The notes under the pieces: model-generated
Told to the model about the DNA's origin: nothing
Databases searched by the model: none
The model's input: only the letters and a program-made list of their open reading frames with translations
Shown: piece by piece, positions 3,697 to 44,114 of the stretch
Numbering within the stretch: the stretch's first letter is position 1
How the letters are laid out: each line of letters begins with the position of its first letter
From: a virus
IMG/VR virus record: IMGVR_UViG_3300027797_000019
Span: 33,024-97,023 of that record
DNA: 64,000 nt
Direction: 5' to 3' (one strand)
Program-made: the position numbers and the translations under genes

Positions 3697-5028
3697 ATGA
3701 GTCTAATTTCATCTGTATATCAGAGTTTAAAACGCAAACGCTCTGATCAGGAGAAAGCTGAAAAGATAGGCATTCCCTTAAAAAAATACCTTGCATTAAA
3801 AGAGTTAATAGTTAATGCAATTAGTGAAATTTCTTCTGTAGTTGATAGTCACGTTGTTGATTATTTGCAAGGAAAGTTAGTTGATAAAGTTGAAGAAACA
3901 GCTCTCATTGGTCAATTAAATGAAGAGCTTGGTAAAATTGTCATTGATAAATCAAAGTCTGAAGGAGCTACTATTGTTGAACAGCACGTTGATCTGGAGA
4001 CCGGTACTACAAAAATTACCGGTCTTTTTGCTGCTGAGCCTAGAAGTTCTGAAGAAATAATAGAGCTACTTAATATTGATACACGAAAGTGGAAACTTTC
4101 GCAATACTGGAACAAAGAAAAAAGTGGGCGATGGTATGTGTCAGCACTTGTAAGTAAACTTCCAGAGGAGCAAGTTATACAAAGCACGTTTTTAGAGATT
4201 CTTCAAAATTATGAATTACCGGAAATTCAACCCCTCGACAAGAGTAACATCTTGCTCAATAAATCAGCAGAAGAAAAAGTCTGTGGAGTTTTCTCTCTTC
4301 AAGATCTTCACTTTGGAAAACCAGGAAACGAAAATCTCGGAGAAATTCTTGAAAACTGTGTAAAGTCCTTATTAACAAAGGCTTACAATACATACTACCT
4401 TGATGAAATAATTTTTGTAGTTGGTGGAGATGCTCTAAATATGGACACATTTAACGGTACAACCACAAAGGGGACTATTGTAGAAAATGGGGAAGGTCCT
4501 GTAGAAACCTACATTAAAGCTTTTGACTCTCTTATGCAAACAATTGGGACAATATCTCAATTTTGCAATAAGCTAAAAATAGTATACTTACCAGGTAATC
4601 ATGATAGATTGTCATCATTTCATCTGGTACATGCTTTACAGCAAGGTTTTAAAGATTGGTCAAATATTGATTTTGATAGCGCATATGCTGAAAGAAAAGT
4701 ACACCTATATGGTTTAAATATGTTCTGTTTTGAGCATGGTGATGTGACTACAAAAAACAATCCTTTGGTATATGCGACAGAATTTCCTATTGAATGGGGT
4801 TCTGCATCATTTAGAACTCTCTATGTTGGACATTATCACACAAAGAGGTCAAAGGAATACTTGACAGAAAACGAAGAAAACGGGTTTACAACTCGTCAAC
4901 TTCCAAGTTTGTCATCCTCAGATTATTATCATTACCACAATAAATGGACTGGTAATAAGCGCGCAGGAATTTTAGAACTGCACTGTGAGAAGAAAGGTAA
5001 AGTTTCAGAGTTTGTTTATACACTTTAA
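3697..5028 (+). CDS. Calcineurin-like metallophosphoesterase (SbcD/Mre11-type fold)
   Basis: The C-terminal half of this 443-residue protein carries the full motif set of the calcineurin-like phosphoesterase superfamily: DLH (D203, H205), GGDALNMD (D245), GNHD (N301-H302-D303), HGD (H347) and GHYH (H379, H381). These residues bind two metals and hydrolyse phosphodiesters or phosphomonoesters. Residues 1-190 are helical, with a basic start and no recognised motif; they may bind DNA or a partner. Members of this superfamily include DNA exonucleases (SbcD/Mre11), cyclic-nucleotide phosphodiesterases and phosphatases, and the sequence alone does not decide between them. The gene sits between adhesin genes and connector genes of a late structural cluster, so a DNA-processing role at packaging or ejection is possible. 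It has its own promoter-like region. Confidence 0.88.
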   Translation: MSLISSVYQSLKRKRSDQEKAEKIGIPLKKYLALKELIVNAISEISSVVDSHVVDYLQGKLVDKVEETALIGQLNEELGKIVIDKSKSEGATIVEQHVDLETGTTKITGLFAAEPRSSEEIIELLNIDTRKWKLSQYWNKEKSGRWYVSALVSKLPEEQVIQSTFLEILQNYELPEIQPLDKSNILLNKSAEEKVCGVFSLQDLHFGKPGNENLGEILENCVKSLLTKAYNTYYLDEIIFVVGGDALNMDTFNGTTTKGTIVENGEGPVETYIKAFDSLMQTIGTISQFCNKLKIVYLPGNHDRLSSFHLVHALQQGFKDWSNIDFDSAYAERKVHLYGLNMFCFEHGDVTTKNNPLVYATEFPIEWGSASFRTLYVGHYHTKRSKEYLTENEENGFTTRQLPSLSSSDYYHYHNKWTGNKRAGILELHCEKKGKVSEFVYTL

Positions 5029-26453: not shown

Positions 26454-29400
26454 ATGACTAACTGTAAGGTAACACCTGCGGACTTCCTTCCTATTTTAAA
26501 GAAGCTGGTGCAGGCGGACCCACAGCGATATACTAACTTTGATAATGTAGCAAAAGCAGTAATCACTAATGGTTCCCTAACCCCCTTTAATAAAGCAACC
26601 GCTATTTATTCATTTGCAGAGCTATTTCAAGCTTTGCACGGACTTGATGTTTCCTTTTATGAATTAGGAAAAGCAAACAATATTGTCGGATTAAAAAGTC
26701 TTATTGAATCAAACCCTGATAACTTTATTGATCAAGCATCTGAAATTTTTGGTGTAAAGTCTAAAGTATCCACAATCAAACCTGAAAAAATTATTGACTC
26801 AATTAAAAATCTTGAGTCATTAAAATCAATTACACAGGTACAGATTGATAATATTCTTAAAGATGTAAATGCGTTTCTATCATCAAATGATTATAAAAAT
26901 CAGGATGATAGATTGCAGGATATTAATAAGTTTATGGATTTTCTTGAGAATACTATTAAACAGCTATCTCCGGAAAATCAGACGTTTCTACTTAATAGAA
27001 CTACAGCTGCACGTACAAAGCTGATAGGCAAATCACCTTATATTCGTTTACAGAATTTGTCAGAAGACTTGCAAACTTACATTGTAAGTCTGCCAGGTTT
27101 TATAGTAGTAGAAGCTGTAAAGCAAGATGGTCAATTTATCTCTTTGAGTGGTGAAGTAATTACGGATTATCTTTTTGCGCGTCCTGCTTTACCTACACCT
27201 AGCGAAACCTTTAACAGAGGTGAAACTATTTTCTATGACGTAAACATGCGCTCTGGTCTAAGAATCAGAGATATTATTTTAGAAGGTCAGAAACCCGCAT
27301 CAGAAGTTTTGGCATCAAAATCAAAAGAAGCAGTTAATTCTGCTTTTAAAGTTTTTGCAGTTAAGGTTGGTAACATTGCAGATAATCGCATATCACGAAT
27401 ATATTCAGAAGCTTCATCAAATCCTTCATTAGCAGGTTTGGCTAATCGGACTTATGAAACTTTTGAGAATGAAGCTCAGATTCAAAAGCTTGAAAAATCT
27501 GTTGGTTTTACTGAAGTTCTTACAGTTGCTAGACCTAAACAAGATCAAGGATTTATTTTAGTGGGTGTTGTAGAAGGTACGGGTGAAACCTTTGAAATAT
27601 TTACTCTTAACAATTACAGTTTTGTTGACAATAACAACAACACAACTATTGTAGACTTCAGTAACGCTGAGCATCTTAAAAGAATACAAAACACCTCTGT
27701 AACGAATAGAAATGGTCAATACGCTAAACTGACTGATGCTGATATCAATGAGCTTAAAAAAGCTTATGAAATTTATAAGCAGTTTGAAAATCAAGTATTA
27801 CCAGAAGTAGAACTTGGTGGAGCAGTTACAGATGTAACAAATATATTCAAAAATAGTTACAACCTATTCTCCTATGGTGCAGGTTCTGGTACATCTAGTC
27901 AATCTTTAGATGACTATGTAATGAATAATCCTGAGACAGCACCGACAGTTGATGTTGTAACATTAGACGAAAGAACAGGAATAGAAACTAATCGTAAAAC
28001 CATACAAGTACCATTAGTCCTTTTTACAAATACGAATCGTTCTACTATTCAGGTTAATCCTGAAGATTTCAATATCGACTCTACTAACTGGTCTTTTGAG
28101 TCACAATTAGGTAATAAAGAAATTATTGAGTTTAATGGAAAAGCGTATAGTTCTGTATCAGAATTTGCTGTAGACTACCTCGGTAAGAATAGTCTTGGAA
28201 GATGGATTAATGCTATGAATTCCAGATCGATTCCTTATAATAAGAAATATCTATTGACAAAGACAGGATCTGGTTTAGTTACATCAAATCCTATCGCGTC
28301 TACAATGTTTAATAACGCAAAGTTTATAGGGTTATATGCAAGAATTGCTAGTCATTTTGATGTTGTAGCTGAGGCATTAGCTACAGCTGAAGGATTAAGT
28401 GATGAGCAGATTAACGATTTGAACTTTGAATTCAATACCAAACAAATTCAAATTGATCCTCGCGGTAGTGTAGCTGTAAACATTAATGTCAGAAAGAGTA
28501 ACGAGAATAAACCTATTCTGGTGTTTACTCTTAAACCTATGCAAAGAGTATACGGTGGTCTAATAAAGCCAATTAGTATTGAGTTTCCAATTGATACGAT
28601 TAAAGATGACATTAAAAGATTTAAGTCTAACAGTGTACTTGAAAAACTAAAAGGAAAGTACACATCTTTAAATATTCACGATTTAAGCACACCAGAAGGT
28701 ATTATCGATTTATACGCTGATTTAGCTAAACTTCAGGAAAGACATCCCGAAGACGCCGAACTTAAAAATTATAATTTACGAGTTACTCAAAGTGTACAGC
28801 GTATTACTAAGAGTATCGTAGATTCAATGGTTGGTACATTTGAAGATGTAATTAATGCAGGTTCAGATGAACTTAAATCTGCGTATGAAAAAAGTGGTTT
28901 AAAAAAGAACCCATTTTTGATTATTGCTCAAACTACACCTGGTTTACCGGGTGAAGGACCTATTTATTCATTACGTGTCAATGATGTCAAAGTTGGAAAA
29001 TTCAATACAAAATTCTATCAAGTTCTTACAGCTAAACCAAGTAAAGTCGCTTTTGAAGCAGCTTACCAAAACTCTACGTCGACTAAAATATCATCTACAA
29101 AAGAGTCAGGGATTGGGTCAACAAACACTCAAGCTAATCCTGCGATACAGAACAATGGGTTAGATATTCCAGTTGAAGACAGCATTCTTTCTGTTGAAGA
29201 AGACTTTTCTGATAATTATACTGAACCGTTTAGCGAAGAACGATTACAATCTGAAAAAGCATGGTTACAAGAAAATCTTAAGTCTGCTAAGCTAGAAGAA
29301 AAAGATTTGTCTGAACTTCTAGAAATAGTAGAAGCAAACGGAACCATATTGGGTATGTATAAGGATAGCGTGATCTATCTAAATAAGACTATCAAATCTG

Positions 29401-32400
29401 GTGGTACTATTTATCACGAAGCTTTTCACCATGTTTTCAGAAAGTTGATGACTTCAAAAGAACGTTCTAGACTATTCAAAGAAGTTAAAGCAAATACTAA
29501 AAACAGTAAATATTTTACAGACGAATACCGTAAATCATTTGCTCAACGTAGAAAGTTAACTGGTAGCAAGGAAAGAATCGACAACCTTATTGCTGAAGAA
29601 ATTTTAGCAGAAGGGTTTAAGTCATATATGACAAAAACTAAAGCTTCAAAACCTGTGGGTTTGCTTGCTAAATTATTTAGCTTACTTAAAGATATTATTG
29701 CATTCTTTACTAAGAATGCTAGTACTATCGATAAGGTTTATGGTAGAATTGCTACAGGATATTATAAAAATGCATCTGTTATTAGTAACTATGAAACAGG
29801 TTCGGTAGCTTTTGAACTAGCCCCTACTCGACATAGAATTGTTCAAAAAGAAGACGGTACTGTTAAAAGGGTATCTAGCTTCCTTCCTGTAGAAGATCAA
29901 AAGCAATTAGCATATAGACTTGCATACGAGATCATGAATTTTGATCCTCGTGAATTTGCCGAAATCAATCCTGATATAAAGTTAACACTAAGAGATAAGT
30001 TCGACTTGCAGAGAAAACTTCTTGCAATGTCTGACTTTAACATTGAAAGTTGGATTGCAACAAATCCTGGTAAGAATAGTGTTATTCAGGAAAACTGGAG
30101 ATCAAGACTTGAAGACATGCGTGCTATTTTAGCACATGGTGTGTTGCAATTTAATATAGATGGTCAAATGATGGCTTTTCTTCCAAAAGCCGAAAACATG
30201 ACTGGTAATCCATCTTATGACAATATTGATGATTCAGGTGTATCTCAAGTTTATGACAAATCAGTTGACGTACTTTTTGATCAAGTCAAGAGTATTTTAA
30301 AACACATAAACTTTGGGTCTGCGGTTGCGCATAAAGAGCAAGAAGATATTGTAGAGCAGGATATAATCAATCAGGATGATTTTGATATTTCTGAAGATGA
30401 ATTAGGATCTGCTTCTGATTTGGACTCATCTTTCTTTAATATTAATCCACTTGAAGGATTACCTAGAGAAATGAGAAGATTTTTGTCTTTGGTTAAATAT
30501 GAAACTGAAGATGAGAATGGTGTCAAGTATAGTAGAATGGTTGATGGTTCTAACATCTTCAATTTATTGATGAAGATTACCGCTAATGCTATGCCGGAAG
30601 AAATTATTCCTAGAATTGCATTGGCTGGTGAGCAATACCGCTATGATGAAAATATTGAAGAAGCTCGTTCTTTAGAAGCAGTATTTAATGTTCTTCAAAA
30701 GAATATTAGGTTTAATGAAAGCTTTGAACCTATTGGTGGAGATTTACTTCTATACTCTCAAGTAATTGATACATTCCACAATGCTGAAATGGATTCATTA
30801 CTTACCAAGCTTAACACTAAAGAAGAATATGATGATCAGAATCAGCTTATTTCATCTCAAACAAGCACATCGCAGGTAGAAAAACTTACTCGTGCAGACG
30901 TTCAATCTAAAATGGATGGATTAGAATCCAAGCTTAAATCTACTAATACAAAATCTGCATCGACAGAAGAATATAAACAAGCTGCTGAAACACTATCTAA
31001 TCTTGCGCTTTCTATTTATCAAAATACGGGTAGAATAACAGATCTTATTGTTTCTAACCAAGAGGTTAAAATTGAATCTTTAGTAGATTCATTATACAAG
31101 AACATGCAGATTCTGGGTATAAACATTCCTAAATCTCTACTTAGATTTTCATTGCTATCAATTGATGTAAAAGAAAATGGAGTACTTCCAAGACAAGAGG
31201 AGAACGTATTTAGACATTACTATGCATTTGAAAGTTTTGCGCATAGTGATGAATACCTACCTAAAAACTTCTTTAAGAATCTCAGTGACATGGCAAAAAA
31301 CATGTCAAAGGGTGTACGTTTCAATACAATCCAGGGACAAAAACTTGATATTTTAAGTAGTTCAAGAACATCAGGTAATGATGGATTTTATGCTTCATTG
31401 CGTAGAGCTATGAAGTATGTGCTTAAAATGGACCCTAAAGAACTACCATCTGTGGTGACAAATGCAGAAGGTAAACCAGTTTACAGATATGTTAAATACA
31501 CTCCTGCTGTATTGTTGCTTCAGGAAATAAAAAACAAAGGTCTTGAAGAAGCTCTGGCATCTAGTATTTACTATAGCGAATACCTCAAACCATGGTTTGA
31601 AGATAACATCTTTGTTGCATCTGCACTGAAAGATAGCGCTGAAGGAGATAAGAAAACTGTAGAGAGAAGACTTGCTTTAAAGACATTTTTTGAAAATCTA
31701 TCAGTAAGTGTCAACGCAGGACTTGAACAAACAGTCAATGGTCAAAGAGTTAGATCTGCAAACTATAAAGGTCTAAATGCTAGATCACAGTATTTACAGG
31801 AGTTAATGAATTTCTCTCAACGTTCAGTATTAAAGTCTGAACATCAGATGTTAACAGCAAACGATGAAAGAGTTTCTTTGACTGGAGAGGTTACAGTATT
31901 TAATCGCAACCTTACTCAGCTTGAAGCTTCGCAAACTAACTTTCTGATAAATGCAATGTATATAAACTTTGCACCAAAGATTGTGGCAGGGAAAGTAGCA
32001 TTCGAGAATACCCCTGTGCAATATCTGCGGGTAGCAGTACAGCAAGAATTTAATCGTATACAAAGAGAATGGTCTGCCAGATCTTTGCGTGATAGTTTAT
32101 ACGAGCAGGGTAATAACACATATCTTAATAATTTTAATGCTAAGAAGACACCTACAGGTGAAATCATTACCGATGATACATCTTTGGCGCAGTCTAAGAA
32201 ATTAAGAGCTTATCAATTTAATAACCTAGATGATTTCTTTGTTACTGGTAAATCTGTTTCTGAGTTTGAAGAAGGTACTGTTCAATTTGAAAGAGCAACA
32301 CTAAGAGATGAACTTATAGAAATAGCAAAAAGAGACGGTGAAGACAAGATTGATTTCAAAAATCTAGATTCAGATTTGAAATCAAGACTTGATAAACAAC

Positions 32401-35400
32401 TTTCATTATACGCTGAAGAATCATTTAAAAAGTATGTAGATAACCTTGTTCTTAACGATATCATTAAAAGAGATGATAGAGGTGTAATTAACTTAAAAGG
32501 TGGTTCAAGACCTAGAGAGATTAGAAATGGTGTAATTAATAACCTAGATGCTAATCAGACAAAAGGAAGTGCACGTGGTACTGCTTTTCAATCTGTTTAT
32601 TTTAGTAATAAAGACCTCGGTATTAATGGTGATGAGCAATTTTTAAGAGACTACTATTTTAACTATTTGATTAACGGTTTGTTTGTTAATCAAATTATTG
32701 ATGGTGACAGAGCAATGGGTATTAAAAACACCATTGATTATTTTAAACGTAACAAGTCTCTACTTGCTGCGGGTAGTACAATGAAAAGAGGATGGTATAA
32801 TGTCGCACATGTTGACGACATTATGCTTTTGCTGAACAGAAACAATATTCTTGCTGGACAATACGATAGTATTGATGATATTGAAGACGACACAATTCGT
32901 TCAGAGTTCCAAGCTTTAGTTGGTGAAGATGGTGTTATCAAAGAAGAGAATGGCAAGGAAAAAGTATTTGACGGTCAGTCTCTTACTCTTTTGATGCATC
33001 GTATTGACTTTTATCAAGAAACAGGTAGATTACCTGAAAAGGCGAGAAACCTTTTGATTGAATCTAACTATCGCAGACTTACAAACAAAGAGATATCTTA
33101 TTTAGAGGATAACAGAATTGTTCTTAACTCTTTTAAAACTGTACATGCAGGACGTGAAAATTATTTCAAACAGTCTGAGCATATCATTAATCGTAATGAT
33201 GTTAGTGTTCTTAATATAACAAATGAGCAAGATCAAGCTATTTTAGAAAATGCATATCGTACAATCTACGACTTGCGTCAAAAAGCCAGATTAATTGAAC
33301 CGGGTAATACAGAACATGAATTAATACAAAACCAAATAAAAGATTTGTATTCAACTATTCATGGTTTTTGGTTACCTCGTCCACACAGACAGAAGCTGCA
33401 TGATCTTTTAAATGCTATGGAATATCATCAGATAGATATGCTGATGGATACTACTGCATCTAAAAAAGTTACAAGCTTGCCTGTTAGCATGGATGAAAGA
33501 GATGGTAATTACATTTCACTTAATAGAAGTAGTTACCGAGTTGACGCAAGATTTAAGTTTAATCAAGTTGAAACTAGCGGAGTATCCGATGAATCTAAAG
33601 CATCTGTTCAAGCTAAGATTTTGCTTCCTGCAGATATTCAGAATACTATTGATAGAATGCTTGCAGAATCAGCTCCTGAAGACCGTGAGCGTGTAACATC
33701 TGAGACACAACAACTTGCAAATATCTTATCTAGATATAACACCACTTTAGCTCGTTCTACAAATTCACGATTGCAGTTTATGTTGAAAGCTCTTAGAGAT
33801 GAGAATGGGAACATAAATATTGGAGAGCTTGTAGATACAATTAGAGAAGCTTTGGTTGATCAGGGGGCTGATAGTAATATGCTAAAGTTTTTTGAAACTC
33901 AGGATGGTAAACCTAAATTTAATGTCAACCTACCTGTAATACGTAAAACATTCCAGTATTATTTCTTCAGTCATTACAGCAATAAAGTATTTGACGAAAA
34001 AGTAAAAGGCGGGAAATATTTCCATGCCACATCGTTTGGATATAAACTATTATACGACAAGCAAACTGGTCGTGTTATTGATTCTGTTGAGCAAGGAATG
34101 GTTGAAAGCGCGGGTCAGTATGAGCAATATTTAGATAGCGACAGATTTGGTACACGATATCCTGGGATATCTACAGAAGTAGATGCTGAAGGAAATACTA
34201 CATACTTTGTAGAAGTAATTGTACCAATGCCTGAATTTAAGTCTTTTGAAGAGTATCAACTCTTTAAAGATAAAATGACTAAAGCATTTGCTACCCGTAT
34301 TCCTACAGAAGATAAGCGATCAATGATAGCTTTCAAGATAGTAGATTTTATTGATGCTTCTTATAAGAATACAATTATTGCACCTCAACTAGTACACTTA
34401 CTTGCAGGTTCTGACTTAGATATTGACTCTTTGTATGCACATGGATATGCGTCTTATGAAGATGCTGTTGGTAAAAAGCATGTATATGGTGACTATAGCG
34501 GTTACGATGGTGTAAGTCGAAATGATGCTCAATTTCTAGAACTCATTAATTCTGTTGGAAGTAATAGCGTATTCCGTTATGAGATTAAAAAAGCTCACCG
34601 CGAATTGATGCAGGAGTTTTATGAAGCTCGGAAGGATAATGAAATTGCTTACGATGAAGATACTGATAGAGTAATGCAACTTATGGGTCTTCCTACTATG
34701 CCTGAATTAGCAGAATTGTGGGGTGCTGAAAATATACAAGAGGAAGTATTCAAAGAATACATGACTGTAAGAAACACCAATGAAGCAAATGAAGAACAAG
34801 CAAATTGGAAACTTCAGGGTGAACTTTCAACAAAACTACGTGCCGCAAAAGGAAGAACAGATTTACTAGAGTCTCAATTTAGCGAGCTTGATAAGAAAGC
34901 ATATGTTAAATTGTATAATTACATTAATGCTGTACAGCTTGTTCTTGCAACTAACGGCTTACCATACACTACTGAACAATTTAGAGAAAATCCACAAATA
35001 ACGGTAGAGACCTATCAGAATCAAAACCTGGATGCAAAGCTTGGTATTATCAGTAATAAGATTGTATTCGACAGCTTGTATTCAGAAGAAAGATCAGACC
35101 CAAGTATGTTTAAAGACTTGGCAATCAATATATTAGGTCTTTCTCCAGAAGCTATAGCTGCAAAATACAACGCCTTTAGTATTGACGGTGTTATAAATGT
35201 AAACAGACTAAATGCTGTAAACAAAGACGGTATTGGTATTACTGCAAATTTTAATAAGTTTCTTGCTTTGGTTGGCGCTAATAAGCTAGTTCTTAAACCT
35301 GAGGAAAGAATTTGGTTTTTAACAGATAACTCTGGAAACAGCAAATTCTATGATTCTTTTGGTGGTAATGAATCTTATCGCTCTATACAACTTGTAGGTA

Positions 35401-37406
35401 ATGCTCTAGGCATGTTCGCTGATGGTGCAAAAGATCCTATCCCAGCTTTATTGCAACTTAATGATGTGAACTTAAATGTCACTCTGGCAATGATTGGTTT
35501 AGGATTACCTATAGAAATGGCTGTGTTTACAAACATGTTACCTGAAATTATTGATGCAGCTGATTCTGTAAAAGATTCAGAAATAAATGGAACATATATT
35601 AAAATGTTCTATAAAGAAGTAAATACTCAGAAGAGAAAACTTCTCACAGATCAGGTCTCAAAGGATTTGTCAGCTGCTAAAATACTTAGCGCATCTCGTA
35701 GAAACTTGATTTATGGTAATGTGTCAGTTAAGTTTACACCACCTACTCAGATTGATAATAGTCGTTTGGATGCTAAACTCTTGACACCCGCTGAACTTGG
35801 GTATACCATTACAGCAAAGTCTGGTGAACCTTTGAGCTTAGAAGCGCAGAAGTATATTCTTCTTGATATGTACTCTAGACAAGCCGCACAATCTTTTGGT
35901 ATTATGGATGCCGGTAGAATTGTAAACCTGTTTAAGAGAATTAAGCCAAGTGCCGCAATGCTTGATAGATTTAGTAAATCTATTAGCAGACTTAAGAATA
36001 ACAGTGGAATATTCCAGAATAGCTCTGAGCTGTTTAAAGGAGAATCTGTGTGGAATCCATTAGCCGCTGCTGTATCGGATATGAATACCCAGCTTTCTAG
36101 AGTAATGTTGTCAAGAAGTAATCCATTGACGTCTTTACGTAATCTGTTTGGAAATATATTCCAAGAGCAAGAAGAAATGGCGGATGTAATTATCGGAACG
36201 CTTATTCTTGATAAAATGAGAGTTGAAGCGGAAAATCCTGGTATAAATAATGATGATCAGTTCTTAAAAAATACTCTCAAAGAAATGTTCAGACCAGAGT
36301 TTTGGTTTGGCAGTGTTTCAGATACATCTAAGTTTACAACTTTAGAAGAAGATTTAGAATATTTGAATGACCAGTATTCTTCTAACCCATTTGTAAGAAG
36401 TATCAGTATTCGTTCAAAAGAAGATGCAGGTGCCGCAAGGTCTTACTACATTTTACAAATGAATACAAAAGCTAAACTTGTACCTGAACTTAAAGAAGAG
36501 ATTATTGACGGTTTTAATGCTTTATTAAAGAGCGTTGATCCTCGTGCCAGAAAGATTGCTGTTAAACTATTCTTCCATGAGATTATTAGAAATGGTATGG
36601 GTAGAAAAGCAAGTAATTTTGCACAATACATTAATACTGATTTGTATAAGAATCTTAATGCTTATACAGAAGAACTTATATCTGCAATATCTAGTAAGAG
36701 TAAATTTGAGCAGTTTTTCAACGGAAAGCGACAAATTAAAGATGTCATGTTCCAGTTATATGTGAAAATGCTTGACGCTGCTGCCACAAGTAAAAATTCT
36801 AAGATACCTACTGTAAATGCAGTATTTATCCAGGATATCGAAATGGCAAAAAAAATATTTGGGGTTGAGTCTATAAAAGCTAATAAAAAAGGTTTTGCTT
36901 ATTCTGACAATATCATTAAAGATCTTGGGTCTGGTAAATATGTTATTTCCCTAGATATGAGATCTTATGAAGGTGAGAATAGAAATCTGATGAATGCTCA
37001 AGTTGCTCCTCTTGGTGTACGAATGGAGGATATGATTACAAATAGATACGAGTTTCCAGCAATGATTAAAAATGCGAATTCAGGTGAAATATTTGTACTT
37101 ACTAAACTCAGAACATCTGAGAAAAGTGAAATGACTACTATGTCTGAATTATTGAGTCAAAGTATCGAAAGTGCTGGAGCTGTTTTGGGTGTTCAAGCTG
37201 AATATCAATTATATCAACCAACAGTTATTGATGGTATTAGCTTAGCAGGATTTTCTAGAAAAGAGATTAATGATTTTATTTCATATGCAAGTGATCCTAA
37301 TAAGAGCTTACCTGAAAGCGTAACACCCCAAGTGTCTGACTTAGACATTGCGTCTAAAGAATTGACAGACAAAACAAACAATGGTGAAATAGAAACTAAA
37401 TGCTAA
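26454..37406 (+). CDS. Giant virion RNA polymerase-like polyprotein with HExxH metalloprotease domain
   Basis: At 3650 residues this is the largest protein here. A zincin segment near residues 975-1055 has HEAFH (H988, E989, H992) and EEILAE (E1048-E1053 as third-ligand candidates). Residues 2066-2099 (YYFNYLINGLF, GDRAMGIKNTIDYFKR) resemble a block I associate with crAss-like virion RNA polymerases. Residues 2615-2658 align by eye with the universal beta-prime double-psi barrel: RIPTEDK (R2615, P2617, T2618), an apolar strand, APQLV, then SDLDIDSLY (D2654, D2656, D2658) against RAPT...HPLV...NADFDGD, with near-conserved spacing. The usual Gly of DFDGD is Ile. Multi-subunit-type single-chain RNA polymerases with DxDGD loops are known in crAss-like virions and transcribe early phage genes after injection. 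Assignment is from motif only; the beta-like barrel with its lysines was not located. Confidence 0.72.
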   Translation: MTNCKVTPADFLPILKKLVQADPQRYTNFDNVAKAVITNGSLTPFNKATAIYSFAELFQALHGLDVSFYELGKANNIVGLKSLIESNPDNFIDQASEIFGVKSKVSTIKPEKIIDSIKNLESLKSITQVQIDNILKDVNAFLSSNDYKNQDDRLQDINKFMDFLENTIKQLSPENQTFLLNRTTAARTKLIGKSPYIRLQNLSEDLQTYIVSLPGFIVVEAVKQDGQFISLSGEVITDYLFARPALPTPSETFNRGETIFYDVNMRSGLRIRDIILEGQKPASEVLASKSKEAVNSAFKVFAVKVGNIADNRISRIYSEASSNPSLAGLANRTYETFENEAQIQKLEKSVGFTEVLTVARPKQDQGFILVGVVEGTGETFEIFTLNNYSFVDNNNNTTIVDFSNAEHLKRIQNTSVTNRNGQYAKLTDADINELKKAYEIYKQFENQVLPEVELGGAVTDVTNIFKNSYNLFSYGAGSGTSSQSLDDYVMNNPETAPTVDVVTLDERTGIETNRKTIQVPLVLFTNTNRSTIQVNPEDFNIDSTNWSFESQLGNKEIIEFNGKAYSSVSEFAVDYLGKNSLGRWINAMNSRSIPYNKKYLLTKTGSGLVTSNPIASTMFNNAKFIGLYARIASHFDVVAEALATAEGLSDEQINDLNFEFNTKQIQIDPRGSVAVNINVRKSNENKPILVFTLKPMQRVYGGLIKPISIEFPIDTIKDDIKRFKSNSVLEKLKGKYTSLNIHDLSTPEGIIDLYADLAKLQERHPEDAELKNYNLRVTQSVQRITKSIVDSMVGTFEDVINAGSDELKSAYEKSGLKKNPFLIIAQTTPGLPGEGPIYSLRVNDVKVGKFNTKFYQVLTAKPSKVAFEAAYQNSTSTKISSTKESGIGSTNTQANPAIQNNGLDIPVEDSILSVEEDFSDNYTEPFSEERLQSEKAWLQENLKSAKLEEKDLSELLEIVEANGTILGMYKDSVIYLNKTIKSGGTIYHEAFHHVFRKLMTSKERSRLFKEVKANTKNSKYFTDEYRKSFAQRRKLTGSKERIDNLIAEEILAEGFKSYMTKTKASKPVGLLAKLFSLLKDIIAFFTKNASTIDKVYGRIATGYYKNASVISNYETGSVAFELAPTRHRIVQKEDGTVKRVSSFLPVEDQKQLAYRLAYEIMNFDPREFAEINPDIKLTLRDKFDLQRKLLAMSDFNIESWIATNPGKNSVIQENWRSRLEDMRAILAHGVLQFNIDGQMMAFLPKAENMTGNPSYDNIDDSGVSQVYDKSVDVLFDQVKSILKHINFGSAVAHKEQEDIVEQDIINQDDFDISEDELGSASDLDSSFFNINPLEGLPREMRRFLSLVKYETEDENGVKYSRMVDGSNIFNLLMKITANAMPEEIIPRIALAGEQYRYDENIEEARSLEAVFNVLQKNIRFNESFEPIGGDLLLYSQVIDTFHNAEMDSLLTKLNTKEEYDDQNQLISSQTSTSQVEKLTRADVQSKMDGLESKLKSTNTKSASTEEYKQAAETLSNLALSIYQNTGRITDLIVSNQEVKIESLVDSLYKNMQILGINIPKSLLRFSLLSIDVKENGVLPRQEENVFRHYYAFESFAHSDEYLPKNFFKNLSDMAKNMSKGVRFNTIQGQKLDILSSSRTSGNDGFYASLRRAMKYVLKMDPKELPSVVTNAEGKPVYRYVKYTPAVLLLQEIKNKGLEEALASSIYYSEYLKPWFEDNIFVASALKDSAEGDKKTVERRLALKTFFENLSVSVNAGLEQTVNGQRVRSANYKGLNARSQYLQELMNFSQRSVLKSEHQMLTANDERVSLTGEVTVFNRNLTQLEASQTNFLINAMYINFAPKIVAGKVAFENTPVQYLRVAVQQEFNRIQREWSARSLRDSLYEQGNNTYLNNFNAKKTPTGEIITDDTSLAQSKKLRAYQFNNLDDFFVTGKSVSEFEEGTVQFERATLRDELIEIAKRDGEDKIDFKNLDSDLKSRLDKQLSLYAEESFKKYVDNLVLNDIIKRDDRGVINLKGGSRPREIRNGVINNLDANQTKGSARGTAFQSVYFSNKDLGINGDEQFLRDYYFNYLINGLFVNQIIDGDRAMGIKNTIDYFKRNKSLLAAGSTMKRGWYNVAHVDDIMLLLNRNNILAGQYDSIDDIEDDTIRSEFQALVGEDGVIKEENGKEKVFDGQSLTLLMHRIDFYQETGRLPEKARNLLIESNYRRLTNKEISYLEDNRIVLNSFKTVHAGRENYFKQSEHIINRNDVSVLNITNEQDQAILENAYRTIYDLRQKARLIEPGNTEHELIQNQIKDLYSTIHGFWLPRPHRQKLHDLLNAMEYHQIDMLMDTTASKKVTSLPVSMDERDGNYISLNRSSYRVDARFKFNQVETSGVSDESKASVQAKILLPADIQNTIDRMLAESAPEDRERVTSETQQLANILSRYNTTLARSTNSRLQFMLKALRDENGNINIGELVDTIREALVDQGADSNMLKFFETQDGKPKFNVNLPVIRKTFQYYFFSHYSNKVFDEKVKGGKYFHATSFGYKLLYDKQTGRVIDSVEQGMVESAGQYEQYLDSDRFGTRYPGISTEVDAEGNTTYFVEVIVPMPEFKSFEEYQLFKDKMTKAFATRIPTEDKRSMIAFKIVDFIDASYKNTIIAPQLVHLLAGSDLDIDSLYAHGYASYEDAVGKKHVYGDYSGYDGVSRNDAQFLELINSVGSNSVFRYEIKKAHRELMQEFYEARKDNEIAYDEDTDRVMQLMGLPTMPELAELWGAENIQEEVFKEYMTVRNTNEANEEQANWKLQGELSTKLRAAKGRTDLLESQFSELDKKAYVKLYNYINAVQLVLATNGLPYTTEQFRENPQITVETYQNQNLDAKLGIISNKIVFDSLYSEERSDPSMFKDLAINILGLSPEAIAAKYNAFSIDGVINVNRLNAVNKDGIGITANFNKFLALVGANKLVLKPEERIWFLTDNSGNSKFYDSFGGNESYRSIQLVGNALGMFADGAKDPIPALLQLNDVNLNVTLAMIGLGLPIEMAVFTNMLPEIIDAADSVKDSEINGTYIKMFYKEVNTQKRKLLTDQVSKDLSAAKILSASRRNLIYGNVSVKFTPPTQIDNSRLDAKLLTPAELGYTITAKSGEPLSLEAQKYILLDMYSRQAAQSFGIMDAGRIVNLFKRIKPSAAMLDRFSKSISRLKNNSGIFQNSSELFKGESVWNPLAAAVSDMNTQLSRVMLSRSNPLTSLRNLFGNIFQEQEEMADVIIGTLILDKMRVEAENPGINNDDQFLKNTLKEMFRPEFWFGSVSDTSKFTTLEEDLEYLNDQYSSNPFVRSISIRSKEDAGAARSYYILQMNTKAKLVPELKEEIIDGFNALLKSVDPRARKIAVKLFFHEIIRNGMGRKASNFAQYINTDLYKNLNAYTEELISAISSKSKFEQFFNGKRQIKDVMFQLYVKMLDAAATSKNSKIPTVNAVFIQDIEMAKKIFGVESIKANKKGFAYSDNIIKDLGSGKYVISLDMRSYEGENRNLMNAQVAPLGVRMEDMITNRYEFPAMIKNANSGEIFVLTKLRTSEKSEMTTMSELLSQSIESAGAVLGVQAEYQLYQPTVIDGISLAGFSRKEINDFISYASDPNKSLPESVTPQVSDLDIASKELTDKTNNGEIETKC
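29412..29615 (+). other. Zincin (HExxH) protease domain inside the RNA polymerase-like protein
   Basis: The segment encodes YHEAFHH (H988, E989, H992) preceded by VIYLNKTIKSGGTI and followed, 56 residues after H992, by AEEILAEGF. The strand-helix-helix order is that of gluzincins. A cleavage role in separating the giant chain or processing partners is inferred. Confidence 0.65.
34296..34427 (+). other. Beta-prime-like RNA polymerase catalytic barrel motif (RxPT...DxDxD)
   Basis: This segment encodes R2615-D2658 of the giant protein. The order Arg-x-Pro-Thr, basic residue, hydrophobic strand, Pro-x-Leu-Val, then Asp-Leu-Asp-Ile-Asp matches the magnesium-binding loop region of two-barrel RNA polymerases. 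The first Asp is 39 residues after the Arg, against about 35 in the bacterial beta-prime subunit. Confidence 0.7.
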
Positions 37407-37415
37407 TGCTATCCT

Positions 37416-40400
37416 ATGAGTACTTGTAAATTTTTATACAACGGACTAGAGTACAACGAGAGCGATATTAAATTGCTTCTTGAAAATGAGGTTATTGAAT
37501 CTGCTCAATATAATCTGACTGATTATAAATTAAGCAACCGTGATAGTAATGTTGCAAAAGCATTTAGATTAAGAGAAATATCTCCTGGTCGATATCTTGC
37601 TACACCCAAGCAATTAGAGGGTTTGAGAAAATGGACTAGTTCTCCTGATGTAAGGGGTGTAGGTTTATTCTACAAACCATATTATACATATGGTGAAAAC
37701 TTATTTGAAGTTAGTTTTAGTACCCCGCAAGCTAATCTAACGGGCGTATTGACTCCTCAAATTCGTGCTAAACAATTAAGAGAGTCTGAACAACAAGATG
37801 TTATCCAAAAAACATTAGACAGAATGTCTGAGGTTTTCCCTGGTTTAAAAGTTTCGTTTGTTAATCCTGAAGATCTTGTTCAATCAGAGCACGGGATTAA
37901 TGTAGATCGAATTAATGGTTTCTTTAAAAATAGTACGGTTTATCTTGTCAATGGTCGTGCAAATACTTCAATAGCAATAGAAGAAGTACTGCACCCATTT
38001 GTCAATACACTGTATGTAGAAAATAGACCTTTGTTTGATCAGCTTTTAAGAGCTGGTAAAAAGCTCGATATTCAGTTTTTTAATGAAATAAGTAACAGGT
38101 ATAAAAACGGTACAGGATATAGCGCTTTAGATATCAATAAAGAGTTTGTAACACAAATGTTACAACGTGCTGTAAAACAAGAGTTTGCAAATAATCCTAC
38201 GCGCCCTGCTTCTGAATTTATGCGTTTGATGGAGCAGTTTTTTGGATGGCTTAAAAATCTAATTTCTGAGATTGTATATCTAGTTAATAGTCGTGGTAAT
38301 CGTGTGATTGATATATCGAGTCTTCCTGAAAAATTAAGTTTTGAAAATTTAGCGGTGTTGCTAAATACTGCTGAGGTAGAGTTTTATATTAACTACAATC
38401 AATCAGGAATAGCATACAGCTTGGACGAAGCTAAACAGGTAAATGATTTATTTAATAGTCAACCCGATGAAAATCTAAGAAGAAGTAATACCCAATATAA
38501 ACTTGATCGCATTAACTCTCAGATTGAAACATTAAAAGCTGTTGTAGAAAATCCAAGAGTTAAGCAAAATGCTAAGCAAGTAGAAACACTTACTAAGCTT
38601 ATGGAGAATGCTGAAAAGAATGCAAAGTTCTTTCGTGATAGTTTAGAAGCTGAAGCTCAAGGACGAAAGCCCCTTGAGTCTGTAAGTGTTAGTGGATTCA
38701 TCGGTTCATCAGAATTTACAACAGTACAAGATTACACCGACTTTAAAGAGTTCGGTACATTTATGCATGCTATACTTGAAGAAGTTCAAGAGGAAGCTAC
38801 AAAAGAAAACAAACGTCTCAGAGAAATATTATCTGAAGAAAAGTTTAAAACAATCCTCGAATCATACCGCAAGAAGAATCCTTTCCAGATTCAGAATTTG
38901 AAAGATGAAGAAATGTTTGAGATGGCACTACAAGTCATTGATGTGCTTGGTTCCAATGTGTCTGCCAGCAATATCATTTTACCTGAACTTACTGTTGGTG
39001 CAAGTGTATCAACTTCTGAGACGGGTCGTACAATGATGCTTGGAAGACTGGATATGGTTGTAATTGATATTACCGGACAACTTCATATTGTAGACTTCAA
39101 AACTAAAAAGGTTAAGCAACTTGTTGTACCTCAAAAAGATGGTGTAACTGATTTTAATATTAACCGGGTATACAAAGAACTTGCAAATAATAAGATTAAA
39201 ATTAATTCGACTAACGGTACAGCTGTAGAATTTCAGGGTCAAAAAAGATCTACTTATGATACATGGAATGCTCAATTGCTTGCATACGAGTATATGCTAA
39301 GACAAAATGGTATTAATGTAGGTAAAAAGGAAATCATTGCTCTAATATATCAAGCAGATATTAATAAGATATACCAAGGGTTTGCTGTTCAAAAGTTTGA
39401 AGGTAACTTCTATGAATATGCTGGGATGGTCAGTATTGAAGGAGATAATCGAAGTGCTGCATTTTCTGAAATTGGTGCTAGGGAATACGATAAAATTAAA
39501 AAAGTTGTTTCCAAATATGTAGAGATTGGTGAATCTCAAGAAAACCAGCAGGAAGTAAATGAGGAGCGCATGGCTTTTGATATGACTGCTGAGCAGTACA
39601 AGCTTTTTGTTAGCTCACTTAAAAAAGCTGTTTCAGATAATATAGATGCTTTATATGGAGAGAGATCTAATCTAAAGTCAAAAGAGGGATATGATCAGGA
39701 AGTTGATACTATCAACAAAAGAATAGAAACTCTCAAAACATTTAAAGACATTATTGATAAAGGAGGTGACATCGCTTCTTCTCTTAAGTTTGCACGTGTT
39801 GTTGAACAAATGGATATTGATATCAATAACATGCTTAAAAACTTTAACGAGGCATTGTCTAGTACCGATGAAGTAGCAAAATCAAGAAAGGTATTAGTCT
39901 ACAAAAAAATGTTGGATAATACCCGTGAAATCATGCGCCTTGTTGAAAATCAAATTAATAGAGCTGAATTTGATGGTAAGATTCAAAAGACTGGTTTTAT
40001 GTACCAGCTTGTTAAAGACTTATCTGCCAAGCTTGATATTATGCAAGCTGATTATAGAGAATATGCTGTTCCGCTTTTTGTAAAAATGATACAGTCTACA
40101 TTCTCAGAAAAAACTTTTGAGGCTGTTGGTGATGATATGCGTATGGCTTTGGAACCCAAGATTAAAAAACTAGAAGAAGAAATTCAAAATCTTATTGATG
40201 GTACACCACTCAAAGGTTTAGATAAGCTTAAATTAAAAGCACTTAAGTTTTTAAATAAAGAATCTTATGATGAGGTTATGGATAAGCTGGATCCTAATAA
40301 GAGAGGTGTCATATATGCTATTGAAGCTAAACAACTTGAGCTAAAAAGATTAAAACTTATCTATGAAACTGGATTTAACTATGATACAGAAAGTATTAAA

Positions 40401-43400
40401 AAAGTAATTGAGGGGACAACTGATCCTGACAGTATTCTTTATATTGGTGCAAGTAATCCAAAACTCATTAGTTTTTTAGGAATGTCGCCTGACCAGTTTA
40501 TATCATCTGCTGGTAATAGCGATCTTGCTATTGCTGCATTTACAAACTTTTTGAAAGACTCTCAAGCTGAAGCTCAAACGTCATTTATTAATGATATTCA
40601 ACAATCTGAACTACAAACCTTACTAGAAAATTTCAGAAGAGGAAGATCTGTTGAATCAATGAATGCACTTGTAAGTGAAATTAGAACAATTCAGTCTTAC
40701 AATGAAAATGGAGAAGCTGCCTCATACCAAGTAGCTACTTATATTAAACCAAGCAGTGAGTCTTACGATAATAAGTTTAATCTTTATAGACAACAGCTTA
40801 AAGCAATTCGTACTAAGATTGATGAAGTAAAAAAAGAAAGAGATAAAGCAGCACAAGAAAAGAATAAAGAAGCATACGAAAAGTTAAAACTAGAAGTAGC
40901 ATCTCTAATTCGTGAGAAAGAAAATATTACTCGTGATCATACAAACTGGATGAGAGAAAACTCGTCGTTACCCTATATTGATGTTTACTATGAGTATCTG
41001 TCTAAACTTTCTCCTGAAATTAAAGAAAAGCTTGAGCTTCTATATATGGAACGAGAAGTTATTCTTGATAGTGTAGGTTTTGGAAATGAGGAACTTATTG
41101 ATGAAGAAGACTTTGATCGTATGCGGGAAATTGACATTGAGATTAAAAAACTCAGAAATGACGCAGCTAAACAAGATTCTCAGTACCAGGAGTATATTGA
41201 TGCTCTTAATACTTTGTTTGTTTATGATGTAAATCAGAATCTTTTCGACCGTATTTACAACAGAAAAAAATTGGAGTATGCAAATAATCCAGAAATGCTG
41301 CGCAAATGGGAAGAGGAAAACATTGTTAGTATACCAAATACTGCATACTATGAGGCTTTAGAATCAATTTACAGTGAAATTGAAAGTATTACTGCAGGTT
41401 TAGGTGATCCTGAACTTACCAATTTGTTTGAGCGCAGAAGACAATTAATGTCTCCATACAAGCGAGATGGTCAATTTGACCCAAGATATTTGTCTGAGCA
41501 AGATAGAAATGAGCTGGATAAGATTACTCAGCAAATCGAAAGTTTAAAAGAAGCTAATAAGTCTTTTAATATATTTAGATTTCTTACTGAAGAGGATGCA
41601 AGTCGATTGAGAGATTTAAGTGCAGAACTTAGAAATATTTCTACTCAACGTTTAAATAAGTTTTATGAGCAAGAACGTGATGAGCGTAAAAATAATCTCT
41701 TGAGAGCAAAGTCTTTGATGGATAATGCAAGGTTGAGATTAGAAGACGCTATTGCTGCAGGTGATAATATTAGGATTGAGAGTGCTAGTACTGATTTAGC
41801 ATTTGCTGAAGTTCAGTTCCAGGCTGAAGAAAAAGTATTTGGTAAATGGTATAATCAACATCATTACTCACCATATGTTTCAATCTTAGAGCAAGATATT
41901 CAATTTGCTACAACAAAGATATTTCTATATGATCGTGTACCTGCCGATCCTCAGTACATGGAAAAACGTCCTAGTAGTAAGTATACTATCAGAAGATTAA
42001 GCGAAGAGGCTTATAACAAAGATTATCAAGAGCTTGCTGATCGTACACCATTACCAAGGGGGTTAAGAATTGTAAATGGTGTCATCGAGGTACTACCCGG
42101 ATTTGAAAATTCAGATAACATTAACTCTAAGTACGTCAAATTATCTCAGGACAAGTCGGCATTTGCTTATTATAATGCGTTTATGAAGATGTTCTTTGAT
42201 ATGCAGAGAAAAACCACAGGTAAAGTCCTAGGTTATAAAGTACCTGCCTCTAAAGCAACTCTTATCGAAAACATTGTTGCCAAAGGATTTTCTCGTGGAA
42301 TGTATAGTGAAATAGCTAAGATGCGAGATAATTTTTTTGGTGTAAAAGTCAGCCAAGAAGATGCTGTAACAAACTTGTATGGTGACATGGGTCCTGATTC
42401 AATTAGGTTCAGATTCAACGATCAATATGATACCAACCTTCAAACTGTTGATGCTGTGAATGCTGGTGCTAAATGGTTATTTGAAGCTTATATAAATCAA
42501 GCAATGTCAGATATGCAACCAACAGCTCAACACATTGTTAATATTGTTGGTGATTTTCGTCGAGAACTAGAGATTAGAAACTCTAATACCGCTACTGATA
42601 AAAAACGTATTCAGGATCTAGCAAAGCTTGAAGAATTGCTTCAGTTTGAAAAACGCAAGTTTATCTCTGGTCAATATGAAGAAGACACAAACAGAAGAAC
42701 GAAGAAAGCACTAAACGGTGTATTAAAAATTGCATCTTTTGGTCGTTTAGGTTTTGATATCACTATGCAGTTTAAAAACTTTATATCTGGTAATATTCAA
42801 GCTTTCTTAGCAACGCATAGTTCTGGACATTACAGTGTACAAGATTACAGATGGGCAAAGTCTCAGATATACGGATATAACGGATTTTTCAGAAAGTATT
42901 TAAGCGACTGGGGAAAACTTGGTAATCTATCTGTAGAGACTATGATGTATAGAATGTATAATCCTGCTCAAAAAGATTATATCAAGTATTTAAACCTAAC
43001 AACAGGTTCTAAGAAAAGAAGAGTACTTGAGAAACTTAGTTCTATTCAAGAACTTGCTTACGCTCTCCAAGATAAAGGTGATACTGAAGTAAGTATGACT
43101 GTTTGGTTAGCTGTTATGAATAGCTACAAGTTTGCCGTTATTGACCCTATTACTCGAGAAGAAGTTAAAGATGATAACGGTGACACCATAATGGTAAGTG
43201 CCTATGAAGCATATACGCAAACCCCTGATGGAAGAATCACTATTAGACCAGATGTAAACTTTACTAAAGATGATGAAAAACGTCTGAGAAGAATTGTTTA
43301 TTCTGAATCACGTAGAGCACAAGGTGCTTATGCAAAGAGCGATATGCCGGCTATTGAACAAACACTTGTAGGTAAAATGATGTACTTTTTTAAAAAATAC

Positions 43401-44114
43401 CTCGTCCCACAAGCTATTAACAGACTTGGAAATTTGCGTACTAATTGGGAAGGCGAAGAAGCTGCTATGGGTTATTGGCGCGCATTAGCAGCTATTGGTA
43501 GTCTGTACTCTTATAAAGAAATGGGTAAGCACCTTCTTCTTGGTGGATTTAGTCCAAGACTTACAAAAAATTCTCCTGTAAATGCTTTTTATAGTAGAAA
43601 AGCTGCTCAAGCTAGTAAAGAATTTTATGCAGCTATTTTGTTAGTAAGTATATCGTTTCTTCTTGCAAATTATGTACGTCGTAAAAAAGATGATGACGAA
43701 GAACTTGGCATGTTTGAAGGAAATGCTATCAGACTTATTTGGGGTCTTAAAGCAGAAACTGCATCACTTACACCTGTGCCAGGAATTGGAAGTTTTGATG
43801 AGTATGCTAGAAACTTTACTCAAATTACAAGTTTAGTTAATGATGGTTTGAAATTCTATAGAGCGGGTGAACACTTGGTAGCTTTTGCATTAATGAATGC
43901 TTATGATTTTACAGGTGCAGATCGACCTGACCCAGAAGATAATTCAATTATGGCAGGTATATTTAGAAGAGGAACTTACCAAAGGCGTGTTGGATTTTAT
44001 GAAAAAGGTGAACCTAAAGTTAACAAGGACTTTGTAGACTTAACAGGTATTAAGAATATCCGTGACTTTTTTGATCCTAATTACCGGATTAGTATAATGC
44101 TAAAGAGTCAATAA
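37416..44114 (+). CDS. Giant cargo protein with PD-(D/E)XK (RecB/Cas4-like) nuclease domain
   Basis: The N-terminal 300 residues of this 2232-residue protein contain a degenerate zincin-like segment, IEEVLHPFV (E189, E190, H193), with no first His. Residues about 440-625 hold all motifs of RecB/Cas4-type nucleases: GTFMHAILEE (H451), GRLDMVVID (D546), VDFKTKK (D560, K562) and QLLAYEYM (Q620, Y624). Long coiled coils cover much of residues 730-1600. A later segment (FGRLGFDITMQFKNFISGN and onward) resembles C-terminal parts of crAss-like giant proteins, and a hydrophobic stretch lies near 2072-2086. The gene starts 9 bp after the RNA polymerase-like gene and is the last of the cargo block. It may be injected and act on host or phage DNA; this is inference. 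Confidence 0.72.
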   Translation: MSTCKFLYNGLEYNESDIKLLLENEVIESAQYNLTDYKLSNRDSNVAKAFRLREISPGRYLATPKQLEGLRKWTSSPDVRGVGLFYKPYYTYGENLFEVSFSTPQANLTGVLTPQIRAKQLRESEQQDVIQKTLDRMSEVFPGLKVSFVNPEDLVQSEHGINVDRINGFFKNSTVYLVNGRANTSIAIEEVLHPFVNTLYVENRPLFDQLLRAGKKLDIQFFNEISNRYKNGTGYSALDINKEFVTQMLQRAVKQEFANNPTRPASEFMRLMEQFFGWLKNLISEIVYLVNSRGNRVIDISSLPEKLSFENLAVLLNTAEVEFYINYNQSGIAYSLDEAKQVNDLFNSQPDENLRRSNTQYKLDRINSQIETLKAVVENPRVKQNAKQVETLTKLMENAEKNAKFFRDSLEAEAQGRKPLESVSVSGFIGSSEFTTVQDYTDFKEFGTFMHAILEEVQEEATKENKRLREILSEEKFKTILESYRKKNPFQIQNLKDEEMFEMALQVIDVLGSNVSASNIILPELTVGASVSTSETGRTMMLGRLDMVVIDITGQLHIVDFKTKKVKQLVVPQKDGVTDFNINRVYKELANNKIKINSTNGTAVEFQGQKRSTYDTWNAQLLAYEYMLRQNGINVGKKEIIALIYQADINKIYQGFAVQKFEGNFYEYAGMVSIEGDNRSAAFSEIGAREYDKIKKVVSKYVEIGESQENQQEVNEERMAFDMTAEQYKLFVSSLKKAVSDNIDALYGERSNLKSKEGYDQEVDTINKRIETLKTFKDIIDKGGDIASSLKFARVVEQMDIDINNMLKNFNEALSSTDEVAKSRKVLVYKKMLDNTREIMRLVENQINRAEFDGKIQKTGFMYQLVKDLSAKLDIMQADYREYAVPLFVKMIQSTFSEKTFEAVGDDMRMALEPKIKKLEEEIQNLIDGTPLKGLDKLKLKALKFLNKESYDEVMDKLDPNKRGVIYAIEAKQLELKRLKLIYETGFNYDTESIKKVIEGTTDPDSILYIGASNPKLISFLGMSPDQFISSAGNSDLAIAAFTNFLKDSQAEAQTSFINDIQQSELQTLLENFRRGRSVESMNALVSEIRTIQSYNENGEAASYQVATYIKPSSESYDNKFNLYRQQLKAIRTKIDEVKKERDKAAQEKNKEAYEKLKLEVASLIREKENITRDHTNWMRENSSLPYIDVYYEYLSKLSPEIKEKLELLYMEREVILDSVGFGNEELIDEEDFDRMREIDIEIKKLRNDAAKQDSQYQEYIDALNTLFVYDVNQNLFDRIYNRKKLEYANNPEMLRKWEEENIVSIPNTAYYEALESIYSEIESITAGLGDPELTNLFERRRQLMSPYKRDGQFDPRYLSEQDRNELDKITQQIESLKEANKSFNIFRFLTEEDASRLRDLSAELRNISTQRLNKFYEQERDERKNNLLRAKSLMDNARLRLEDAIAAGDNIRIESASTDLAFAEVQFQAEEKVFGKWYNQHHYSPYVSILEQDIQFATTKIFLYDRVPADPQYMEKRPSSKYTIRRLSEEAYNKDYQELADRTPLPRGLRIVNGVIEVLPGFENSDNINSKYVKLSQDKSAFAYYNAFMKMFFDMQRKTTGKVLGYKVPASKATLIENIVAKGFSRGMYSEIAKMRDNFFGVKVSQEDAVTNLYGDMGPDSIRFRFNDQYDTNLQTVDAVNAGAKWLFEAYINQAMSDMQPTAQHIVNIVGDFRRELEIRNSNTATDKKRIQDLAKLEELLQFEKRKFISGQYEEDTNRRTKKALNGVLKIASFGRLGFDITMQFKNFISGNIQAFLATHSSGHYSVQDYRWAKSQIYGYNGFFRKYLSDWGKLGNLSVETMMYRMYNPAQKDYIKYLNLTTGSKKRRVLEKLSSIQELAYALQDKGDTEVSMTVWLAVMNSYKFAVIDPITREEVKDDNGDTIMVSAYEAYTQTPDGRITIRPDVNFTKDDEKRLRRIVYSESRRAQGAYAKSDMPAIEQTLVGKMMYFFKKYLVPQAINRLGNLRTNWEGEEAAMGYWRALAAIGSLYSYKEMGKHLLLGGFSPRLTKNSPVNAFYSRKAAQASKEFYAAILLVSISFLLANYVRRKKDDDEELGMFEGNAIRLIWGLKAETASLTPVPGIGSFDEYARNFTQITSLVNDGLKFYRAGEHLVAFALMNAYDFTGADRPDPEDNSIMAGIFRRGTYQRRVGFYEKGEPKVNKDFVDLTGIKNIRDFFDPNYRISIMLKSQ
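38754..39287 (+). other. PD-(D/E)XK nuclease domain
   Basis: The segment encodes H451 to Y624 of the giant cargo protein. His in GTFMHA, Asp in GRLD, D-x-K in VDFKTK and the QxxxY helix motif appear in the order and spacing of the RecB/AddB/Cas4 nuclease family, with a predicted beta hairpin between the GRLD and DFK motifs. All metal-binding residues are present, so activity is expected. Confidence 0.75.

What the first reader, a model, noticed from the sequence alone, without database searches (positions are those of the whole stretch)
38754..39287. Complete RecB/Cas4-type nuclease motif set inside a giant cargo protein
His, GRLD, DFK and QxxxY motifs appear in order (H451, D546, D560/K562, Q620/Y624) in a 2232-residue protein immediately downstream of the RNA polymerase-like giant. 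If packaged, this would be an injected nuclease, which could degrade host DNA, trim the phage end or counter host recombination or defence.
Basis: partly seen in the sequence, partly recalled or inferred. Interest (0 to 1): 0.78.

Follow-up and report, generated by a model that had tools for sequence, protein, structure and literature searches.

The report
RecB-like nuclease in crassvirus cargo protein
An aquatic relative of the gut phage crAssphage carries an intact DNA-cutting-enzyme domain inside one of the giant proteins that its cultured cousins pack into the virus particle; a nuclease domain in such giants has been reported before, so this is a well-preserved new example and not a new kind of system.

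Summary
Confirmed. The motif set lies exactly where stated: G447xxxH451, G543RLD546, D560FK562, Q620xxxY624 of the 2232-aa ORF 37416-44114. It is a genuine RecB/Cas4-like PD-(D/E)XK domain. Pfam PF12705 matches the window protein (1.3e-8, above the curated cut-off) and all 30 relatives scanned. Every catalytic residue is invariant in 43 orthologous sequences down to ~30% identity. dN is lower here than in any other part of the protein. The AlphaFold model (pLDDT 88) matches AddAB, Cas4, RecE and AdnAB nuclease domains. The virus is an aquatic-type Crassvirales phage. The host protein is a divergent gp49-type giant next to the giant with the RNA polymerase DxDxD motif. PhicrAss001 gp47, gp49 and gp50 were found in virions by mass spectrometry, and gp47 itself carries a related, more divergent PD-(D/E)XK domain. 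Packaging is therefore well supported by homology, though unproven for this phage. Nuclease activity is very likely; the DNA target is unknown. Yutin et al. [quoted passage not shown] Added here: the domain sits in the gp49-type giant, keeps the motif-I His, and in this clade follows a zincin-like domain with degenerate HExxH.

The parts
37416..44114 (+). 2232-aa giant protein (P0001), divergent homologue of the crassvirus RNA-polymerase-associated virion protein gp49, carrying the nuclease domain
38628..39431 (+). RecB/Cas4-like PD-(D/E)XK nuclease domain, residues 405-672
   Evidence: PF12705 E=1.3e-8; PHROG exonuclease 3e-8; AF2 pLDDT 88.0, pTM 0.85; Foldseek AddAB/Cas4/RecE
38754..38768 (+). 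motif I G447-x-x-x-H451
38985..38987 (+). E524, invariant acidic residue at the start of the core sheet (ILPE)
39042..39053 (+). motif II G543-R-L-D546
39093..39101 (+). motif III D560-F-K562
39273..39287 (+). Q620-x-x-x-Y624 motif
37725..38315 (+). zincin-like N-terminal module (about residues 104-300) found only in the window clade among the orthologues; HExxH degenerate (EEVLH, residues 189-193, at 37980-37994)
   Evidence: homologous to cr118_1 giant and to Leptolyngbya phage Lbo-JY46 giant, where the motif is intact HEFMH
42258..43505 (+). gp49-type conserved C-terminal region (residues about 1615-2030)
   Evidence: hhalign to crAss001 gp49; blastp E=2e-4; family HMM hits cr116_1 gp49-position protein E=4.6e-11
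26454..37406 (+). 3650-aa neighbouring giant: zincin HEAFH (29415-29429) and RNA polymerase DxDxD (DLDID, 34413-34427)
   Evidence: matches crAss001 gp47 C-terminus (2e-8) and gp50 around DxDxD (7e-7); motifs
22396..26433 (+). 1345-aa protein resembling the N-terminal part of gp47-type giants, without nuclease domain
   Evidence: blastp E=4e-4 to cr85_1 gp47; no hit to the gp47 nuclease profile

Best explanation
The finding is a catalytically competent RecB/Cas4-like PD-(D/E)XK deoxyribonuclease domain fused into the gp49-type RNA-polymerase-associated cargo giant of a Crassvirales phage. The giant is probably made late, packed in the capsid with the virion RNA polymerase, extruded partly unfolded through portal and tail at infection, and refolded in the cytoplasm. 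There the domain would act in the first minutes of infection as a divalent-metal-dependent DNase, using E524/D546/D560/K562 with H451 and Q620/Y624 as helpers. The most likely role is in DNA transactions at infection onset: attack on host or competitor DNA, or processing of the incoming phage genome's ends. Shown by computation: domain, fold, intact conserved active site, strong purifying selection, homology to virion proteins. Inferred: packaging in this phage, catalysis, timing, substrate.
For: PF12705 above its curated cut-off, 1.3e-8, and matched by 30 of 30 relatives; PHROG exonuclease and CRISPR-associated (Cas4-like) families. All motif residues invariant in 43 orthologous sequences, with near-constant spacing in the 32 aligned. 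dN over residues 405-672 is the lowest of five segments in both close comparisons (0.017 and 0.035; dN/dS 0.017 and 0.007), though dS is near or at saturation. AF2 pLDDT 88; the top PDB folds are AddAB, DinG, Cas4-type, RecE and AdnAB. gp49-type C-terminus beside a DxDxD giant. crAss001 gp47/gp49/gp50 found in virions by mass spectrometry, and the cargo-extrusion model (PMC10172136). crAss001 gp47 and cr116_1 carry a related PD-(D/E)XK domain (profile-profile probability 96.6%, E=5e-10).
Against: No experiment on this phage. Homology to gp49 is weak and confined to the C-terminal half. crAss001's own gp47 copy has Asp (GTxVD) where this family has the motif-I His, so the virion precedent is for a divergent subtype. 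Foldseek TM-scores to solved structures are moderate (at most about 0.43 by query). A free DNase entering with naked phage DNA would endanger the phage, so activity must be restricted or targeted.
Confidence: 0.72

Rival explanations
1. The nuclease acts on the phage's own DNA: it is delivered with the RNA polymerase to trim or resect the ends of the incoming linear genome and promote circularisation or recombination.
For: The RecB/AddAB/RecE fold class acts on DNA ends (established knowledge); the domain travels in the complex that must handle the phage genome; the virus keeps an SbcD-like exonuclease in its structural block and a second standalone PD-(D/E)XK gene.
Against: No direct evidence of substrate; other nucleases are already encoded separately.
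Confidence: 0.3
2. The nuclease attacks host DNA or host defence elements immediately after ejection (host take-over or counter-defence).
For: Delivery at time zero with the virion RNA polymerase would suit early host shut-off; strong conservation of the active site.
Against: Nothing links it to a host target; incoming unmodified phage DNA would need protection.
Confidence: 0.33
3. The domain works only in the producing cell, for example in genome packaging, maturation or recombination during late infection, and is packaged as a bystander or not at all.
For: Encoded in the late/structural-side block; crAss001 cargo genes are expressed late (PMC10136315).
Against: gp47, gp49 and gp50 of crAss001 are in virions.
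Confidence: 0.15
4. A structural DNA-binding relic without catalysis.
For: Some crassvirus relatives carry altered motif I (crAss001 and cr116_1 have Asp in place of His).
Against: In this lineage every catalytic residue is invariant across 43 sequences and dN is lowest in this segment.
Confidence: 0.08
5. Chance motif match with no nuclease fold.
For: The motif order alone occurs in 0.6% of shuffles of this long protein.
Against: Pfam, PHROG, fold and conservation evidence.
Confidence: 0.01

Closest known systems
PDDEXK domain in the large transcription-associated proteins of crAss-like phages (Yutin et al. 2021, PMC7886860)
   Same: Same superfamily, same virus order, same transcription gene block of giant proteins
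   Different: The window belongs to a lineage whose nuclease giant has no close match among GenBank phage records; here the domain is in the gp49-type giant and keeps the motif-I His
PhicrAss001 gp47 (and cr116_1 QOR59396) PD-(D/E)XK domain
   Same: Related domain by profile comparison (probability 96.6%) in an RNA-polymerase-associated giant; gp47 is a virion protein by mass spectrometry (PMC10172136)
   Different: Motif I is GTxVD/GTGMD rather than GTFMH; in crAss001 gp47 the zincin HEAFH follows the nuclease domain, whereas in the window the intact HEAFH zincin and the nuclease domain are in different proteins
PhicrAss001 gp49 and its cr116_1 counterpart
   Same: C-terminal homology and position next to the RNA polymerase giant; gp49 is a virion protein
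   Different: The gut versions are shorter (1349 and 1281 aa) and have no detectable PD-(D/E)XK domain
RecB / AddAB / AdnAB nuclease domains, RecE, Cas4 (SSO0001, ACE1), Exo5
   Same: Fold and motif set His, GxxD, DxK, QxxxY
   Different: No helicase in the protein and no Fe-S cysteines (only Cys is residue 4)

Membership tests
PD-(D/E)XK superfamily, RecB/Cas4-like (PF12705) | Profile match above curated cut-off | tested here: met
   35.5 bits against a cut-off of 22; 30 of 30 relatives match
PD-(D/E)XK superfamily, RecB/Cas4-like (PF12705) | Motifs His, GxxD, (D/E)xK, QxxxY in order | tested here: met
PD-(D/E)XK superfamily, RecB/Cas4-like (PF12705) | Alpha-beta core fold shared with solved family members | tested here: met
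   AF2 model; Foldseek E=1.6e-5 to AddAB, then Cas4 and RecE; TM-scores moderate
PD-(D/E)XK superfamily, RecB/Cas4-like (PF12705) | Metal-dependent DNase activity | not testable with these tools
   Needs purified protein
Cas4 / AddB / Exo5 iron-sulphur nucleases | Four cysteines for a 4Fe-4S cluster | tested here: not met
   Only cysteine is residue 4
RecB/AddA helicase-nucleases | SF1 helicase in the same polypeptide | tested here: not met
   No helicase family in P0001 or P0002
Crassvirales | Crassvirus major capsid protein and tail ring protein | tested here: met
   PF23898 4.7e-31; PF24228 3e-9; TerL and portal hits
Crassvirus RNA-polymerase-associated cargo proteins | Sequence homology to gp47/gp49/gp50 and the DxDxD neighbour | tested here: met
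Crassvirus RNA-polymerase-associated cargo proteins | Presence in purified virions | not testable with these tools
   Only by homology to crAss001 mass spectrometry

The most novel reading that the evidence does not exclude
Crassviruses inject an active RecB-like DNase together with their virion RNA polymerase as a widespread take-over enzyme, with the nuclease and zincin modules shuffled between the co-injected giants in different lineages (gp47 in gut Steigviridae, gp49-type in this clade).
Probability: 0.4. Interest if true: 0.65.

Novelty: new member of a known kind. Interest (0 to 1): 0.38.

Why it matters
If the protein is packaged and active, an RNA polymerase and a DNA nuclease would enter the host together at time zero in one of the most abundant phage orders. 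Since crAss001 gp47, a protein already seen in virions, also carries a related PD-(D/E)XK domain, the role of injected nuclease domains in crassvirus infection can be tested in a cultured system. A text search of the structural paper that reported gp47 in virions found no mention of a nuclease.

Tried and rejected
Megablast of the region against phage records: no match. tblastn of the whole protein at 1e-5 found only the N-terminal module in cr118_1. PDB sequence search with the domain profile gave no significant hit; its best nuclease-like hit was a UvrD-type helicase (6ppu) at E=2.4. No relative of the domain in GTDB genomes, so no support for recent acquisition from, or a prophage in, a sequenced host. 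PDB sequence searches with the full-length giants gave nothing useful. First AlphaFold run with 12 sequences was poor (pLDDT 63.8) and was replaced. I considered the ~196-aa ORF between the giants in some relatives as a free-standing copy of the zincin module; blastp found no relation. Literature searches for injected or encapsidated phage nucleases gave no direct precedent.

Full report
Observation. The ORF at 37416-44114 encodes 2232 residues. A loose motif regular expression occurs in 29 of 5000 shuffles of this protein, so motif order alone would be weak evidence in so long a protein. Homology and conservation settle the matter.

Identity of the domain. Pfam PDDEXK_1 (PF12705) matches residues 444-567 with E=1.3e-8, 35.5 bits against a curated cut-off of 22, and PHROG exonuclease 1218 matches with 3e-8. 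With the excised domain the Pfam E-value is 6.2e-11, and 30 of 30 relatives match the same family, with PHROG exonuclease and CRISPR-associated families next. Three scans of IMG/VR gave 42 loci encoding orthologous giants, plus one different giant (L048). In the 43 orthologous sequences including the window, G447, H451, E524, G543, R544, D546, D560, K562, Q620 and Y624 are all invariant (I read the single deviating row as L048, whose giant is of another kind). Domain identity to the window falls to about 30%, and motif spacing is nearly constant in the 32 sequences aligned. Between the window and two close relatives, dN is lowest over residues 405-672 of five segments (0.017 and 0.035; dN/dS 0.017 and 0.007). 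dS is near or at saturation, so the ratios are only rough and the dN comparison is the safer statement.

Fold. With 32 sequences AlphaFold gives pLDDT 88.0 and pTM 0.85. Against the PDB the best matches are AddAB nuclease domains, a DinG protein, Cas4-type proteins (ACE1, SSO0001), human Exo5, AdnAB and E. coli RecE, with E from 1.6e-5 to about 1e-3 and moderate TM-scores. Against viral predicted structures, five of the top eight matches are named as crassvirus proteins, most of them large, including one of cr116_1 labelled PD-(D/E)XK endonuclease-like. The domain has no Fe-S cysteines (the only cysteine is residue 4), and no helicase family was found in either giant.

Virus and neighbourhood. 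The window is part of a 97-kb virus record. 'Aquatic' is my inference: the record carries no habitat label here, but the relatives found are metagenome contigs and none of the gut crassvirus genomes has a close match. Crassvirus major capsid protein PF23898 (4.7e-31), ring protein PF24228 (3e-9) and terminase and portal hits place it in Crassvirales. The portal and capsid proteins are closest to Leptolyngbya phage Lbo-JY46. The upstream giant (26454-37406) carries DLDID at residue 2654 and HEAFH at 988. It matches crAss001 gp50 around the DxDxD motif and the zincin end of crAss001 gp47. The nuclease giant matches crAss001 gp49 in its C-terminal part (blastp 2e-4), and the family profile finds the gp49-position protein of cr116_1 with E=4.6e-11. 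ORF 22396-26433 weakly resembles the N-terminal part of gp47-type giants.

Packaging. In PhicrAss001, gp47, gp49 and gp50 were detected in virions by mass spectrometry and are thought to be extruded partly unfolded at infection (PMC10172136). Comparison of the window family with crAss001 gp47 uncovers a PD-(D/E)XK domain at about residues 1709-1863 (GEVD, DVK, QxxxY). Profile against profile gives 96.6% probability and E=5e-10. cr116_1 has the same domain in the giant next to its putative cargo proteins. Thus a virion-detected crassvirus protein contains a related domain, although with Asp in place of the motif-I His. A text search of the virion paper for 'nuclease' gave no occurrence. This makes packaging of the window protein likely, but it remains inference.

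Arrangement. In the window and its three close relatives the nuclease domain is preceded by a module of about 300 residues that the other 39 orthologues lack. It is homologous to a region of cr118_1 and of Lbo-JY46. Lbo-JY46 has an intact HEFMH, while the window has EEVLH and cr118_1 EEVMH, so this looks like a zincin-like domain with a degenerate metal motif. In crAss001 the nuclease and zincin domains are together in gp47; in the window the intact HEAFH zincin and the nuclease are in two different giants. Domain movement or independent acquisition cannot be told apart here.

Mechanism. The best-supported account is a DNase domain delivered with the virion RNA polymerase, acting at the start of infection. 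Whether it attacks host DNA or processes the incoming phage DNA is open. An unrestrained nuclease would threaten the phage's own ends, which argues for targeting or restriction. None of these steps was tested experimentally.

Novelty. Yutin et al. [quoted passage not shown] The finding is therefore a new, well-conserved member of a known kind. What is added is placement in the gp49-type giant of this lineage, intact catalytic residues across that lineage, and the link to a virion-detected crAss001 protein.

Noticed in passing
1554-2438 (+): Small structural-region protein with four Spondin-like TSP1 (thrombospondin) repeat matches, PF19028 E=1.3e-43, a domain best known from eukaryotes.
   Followed up: no
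37980-37994 (+): EEVLH in place of HExxH in the zincin-like N-terminal module; intact HEFMH in Leptolyngbya phage Lbo-JY46, while the neighbouring giant keeps HEAFH.
   Followed up: partly
L017:2495-5212 and L017:6640-8262: Portal and capsid proteins are closest among phage records to Leptolyngbya boryana phage Lbo-JY46 (33% and 28%), a record with a cyanobacterial host, whereas crassviruses are said to infect only Bacteroidota.
   Followed up: partly
L016:18263-19120: Second, standalone PD-(D/E)XK gene in the same genome, outside the window (PF12705 8.8e-6).
   Followed up: no
3697-5028 (+): SbcD-like DNA repair exonuclease (phrog_704, 7.7e-45) inside the structural gene block, conserved in Lbo-JY46.
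   Followed up: no
L048:6158-15844: A different 3228-aa giant with a PD-(D/E)XK domain near residues 1200-1400, closer to the gp47-type profile.
   Followed up: partly
L016:251-1108 and L016:2355-5634: Spore photoproduct lyase-like radical SAM gene, and an adjacent MoxR-type AAA plus VWA pair, in the same phage genome.
   Followed up: no
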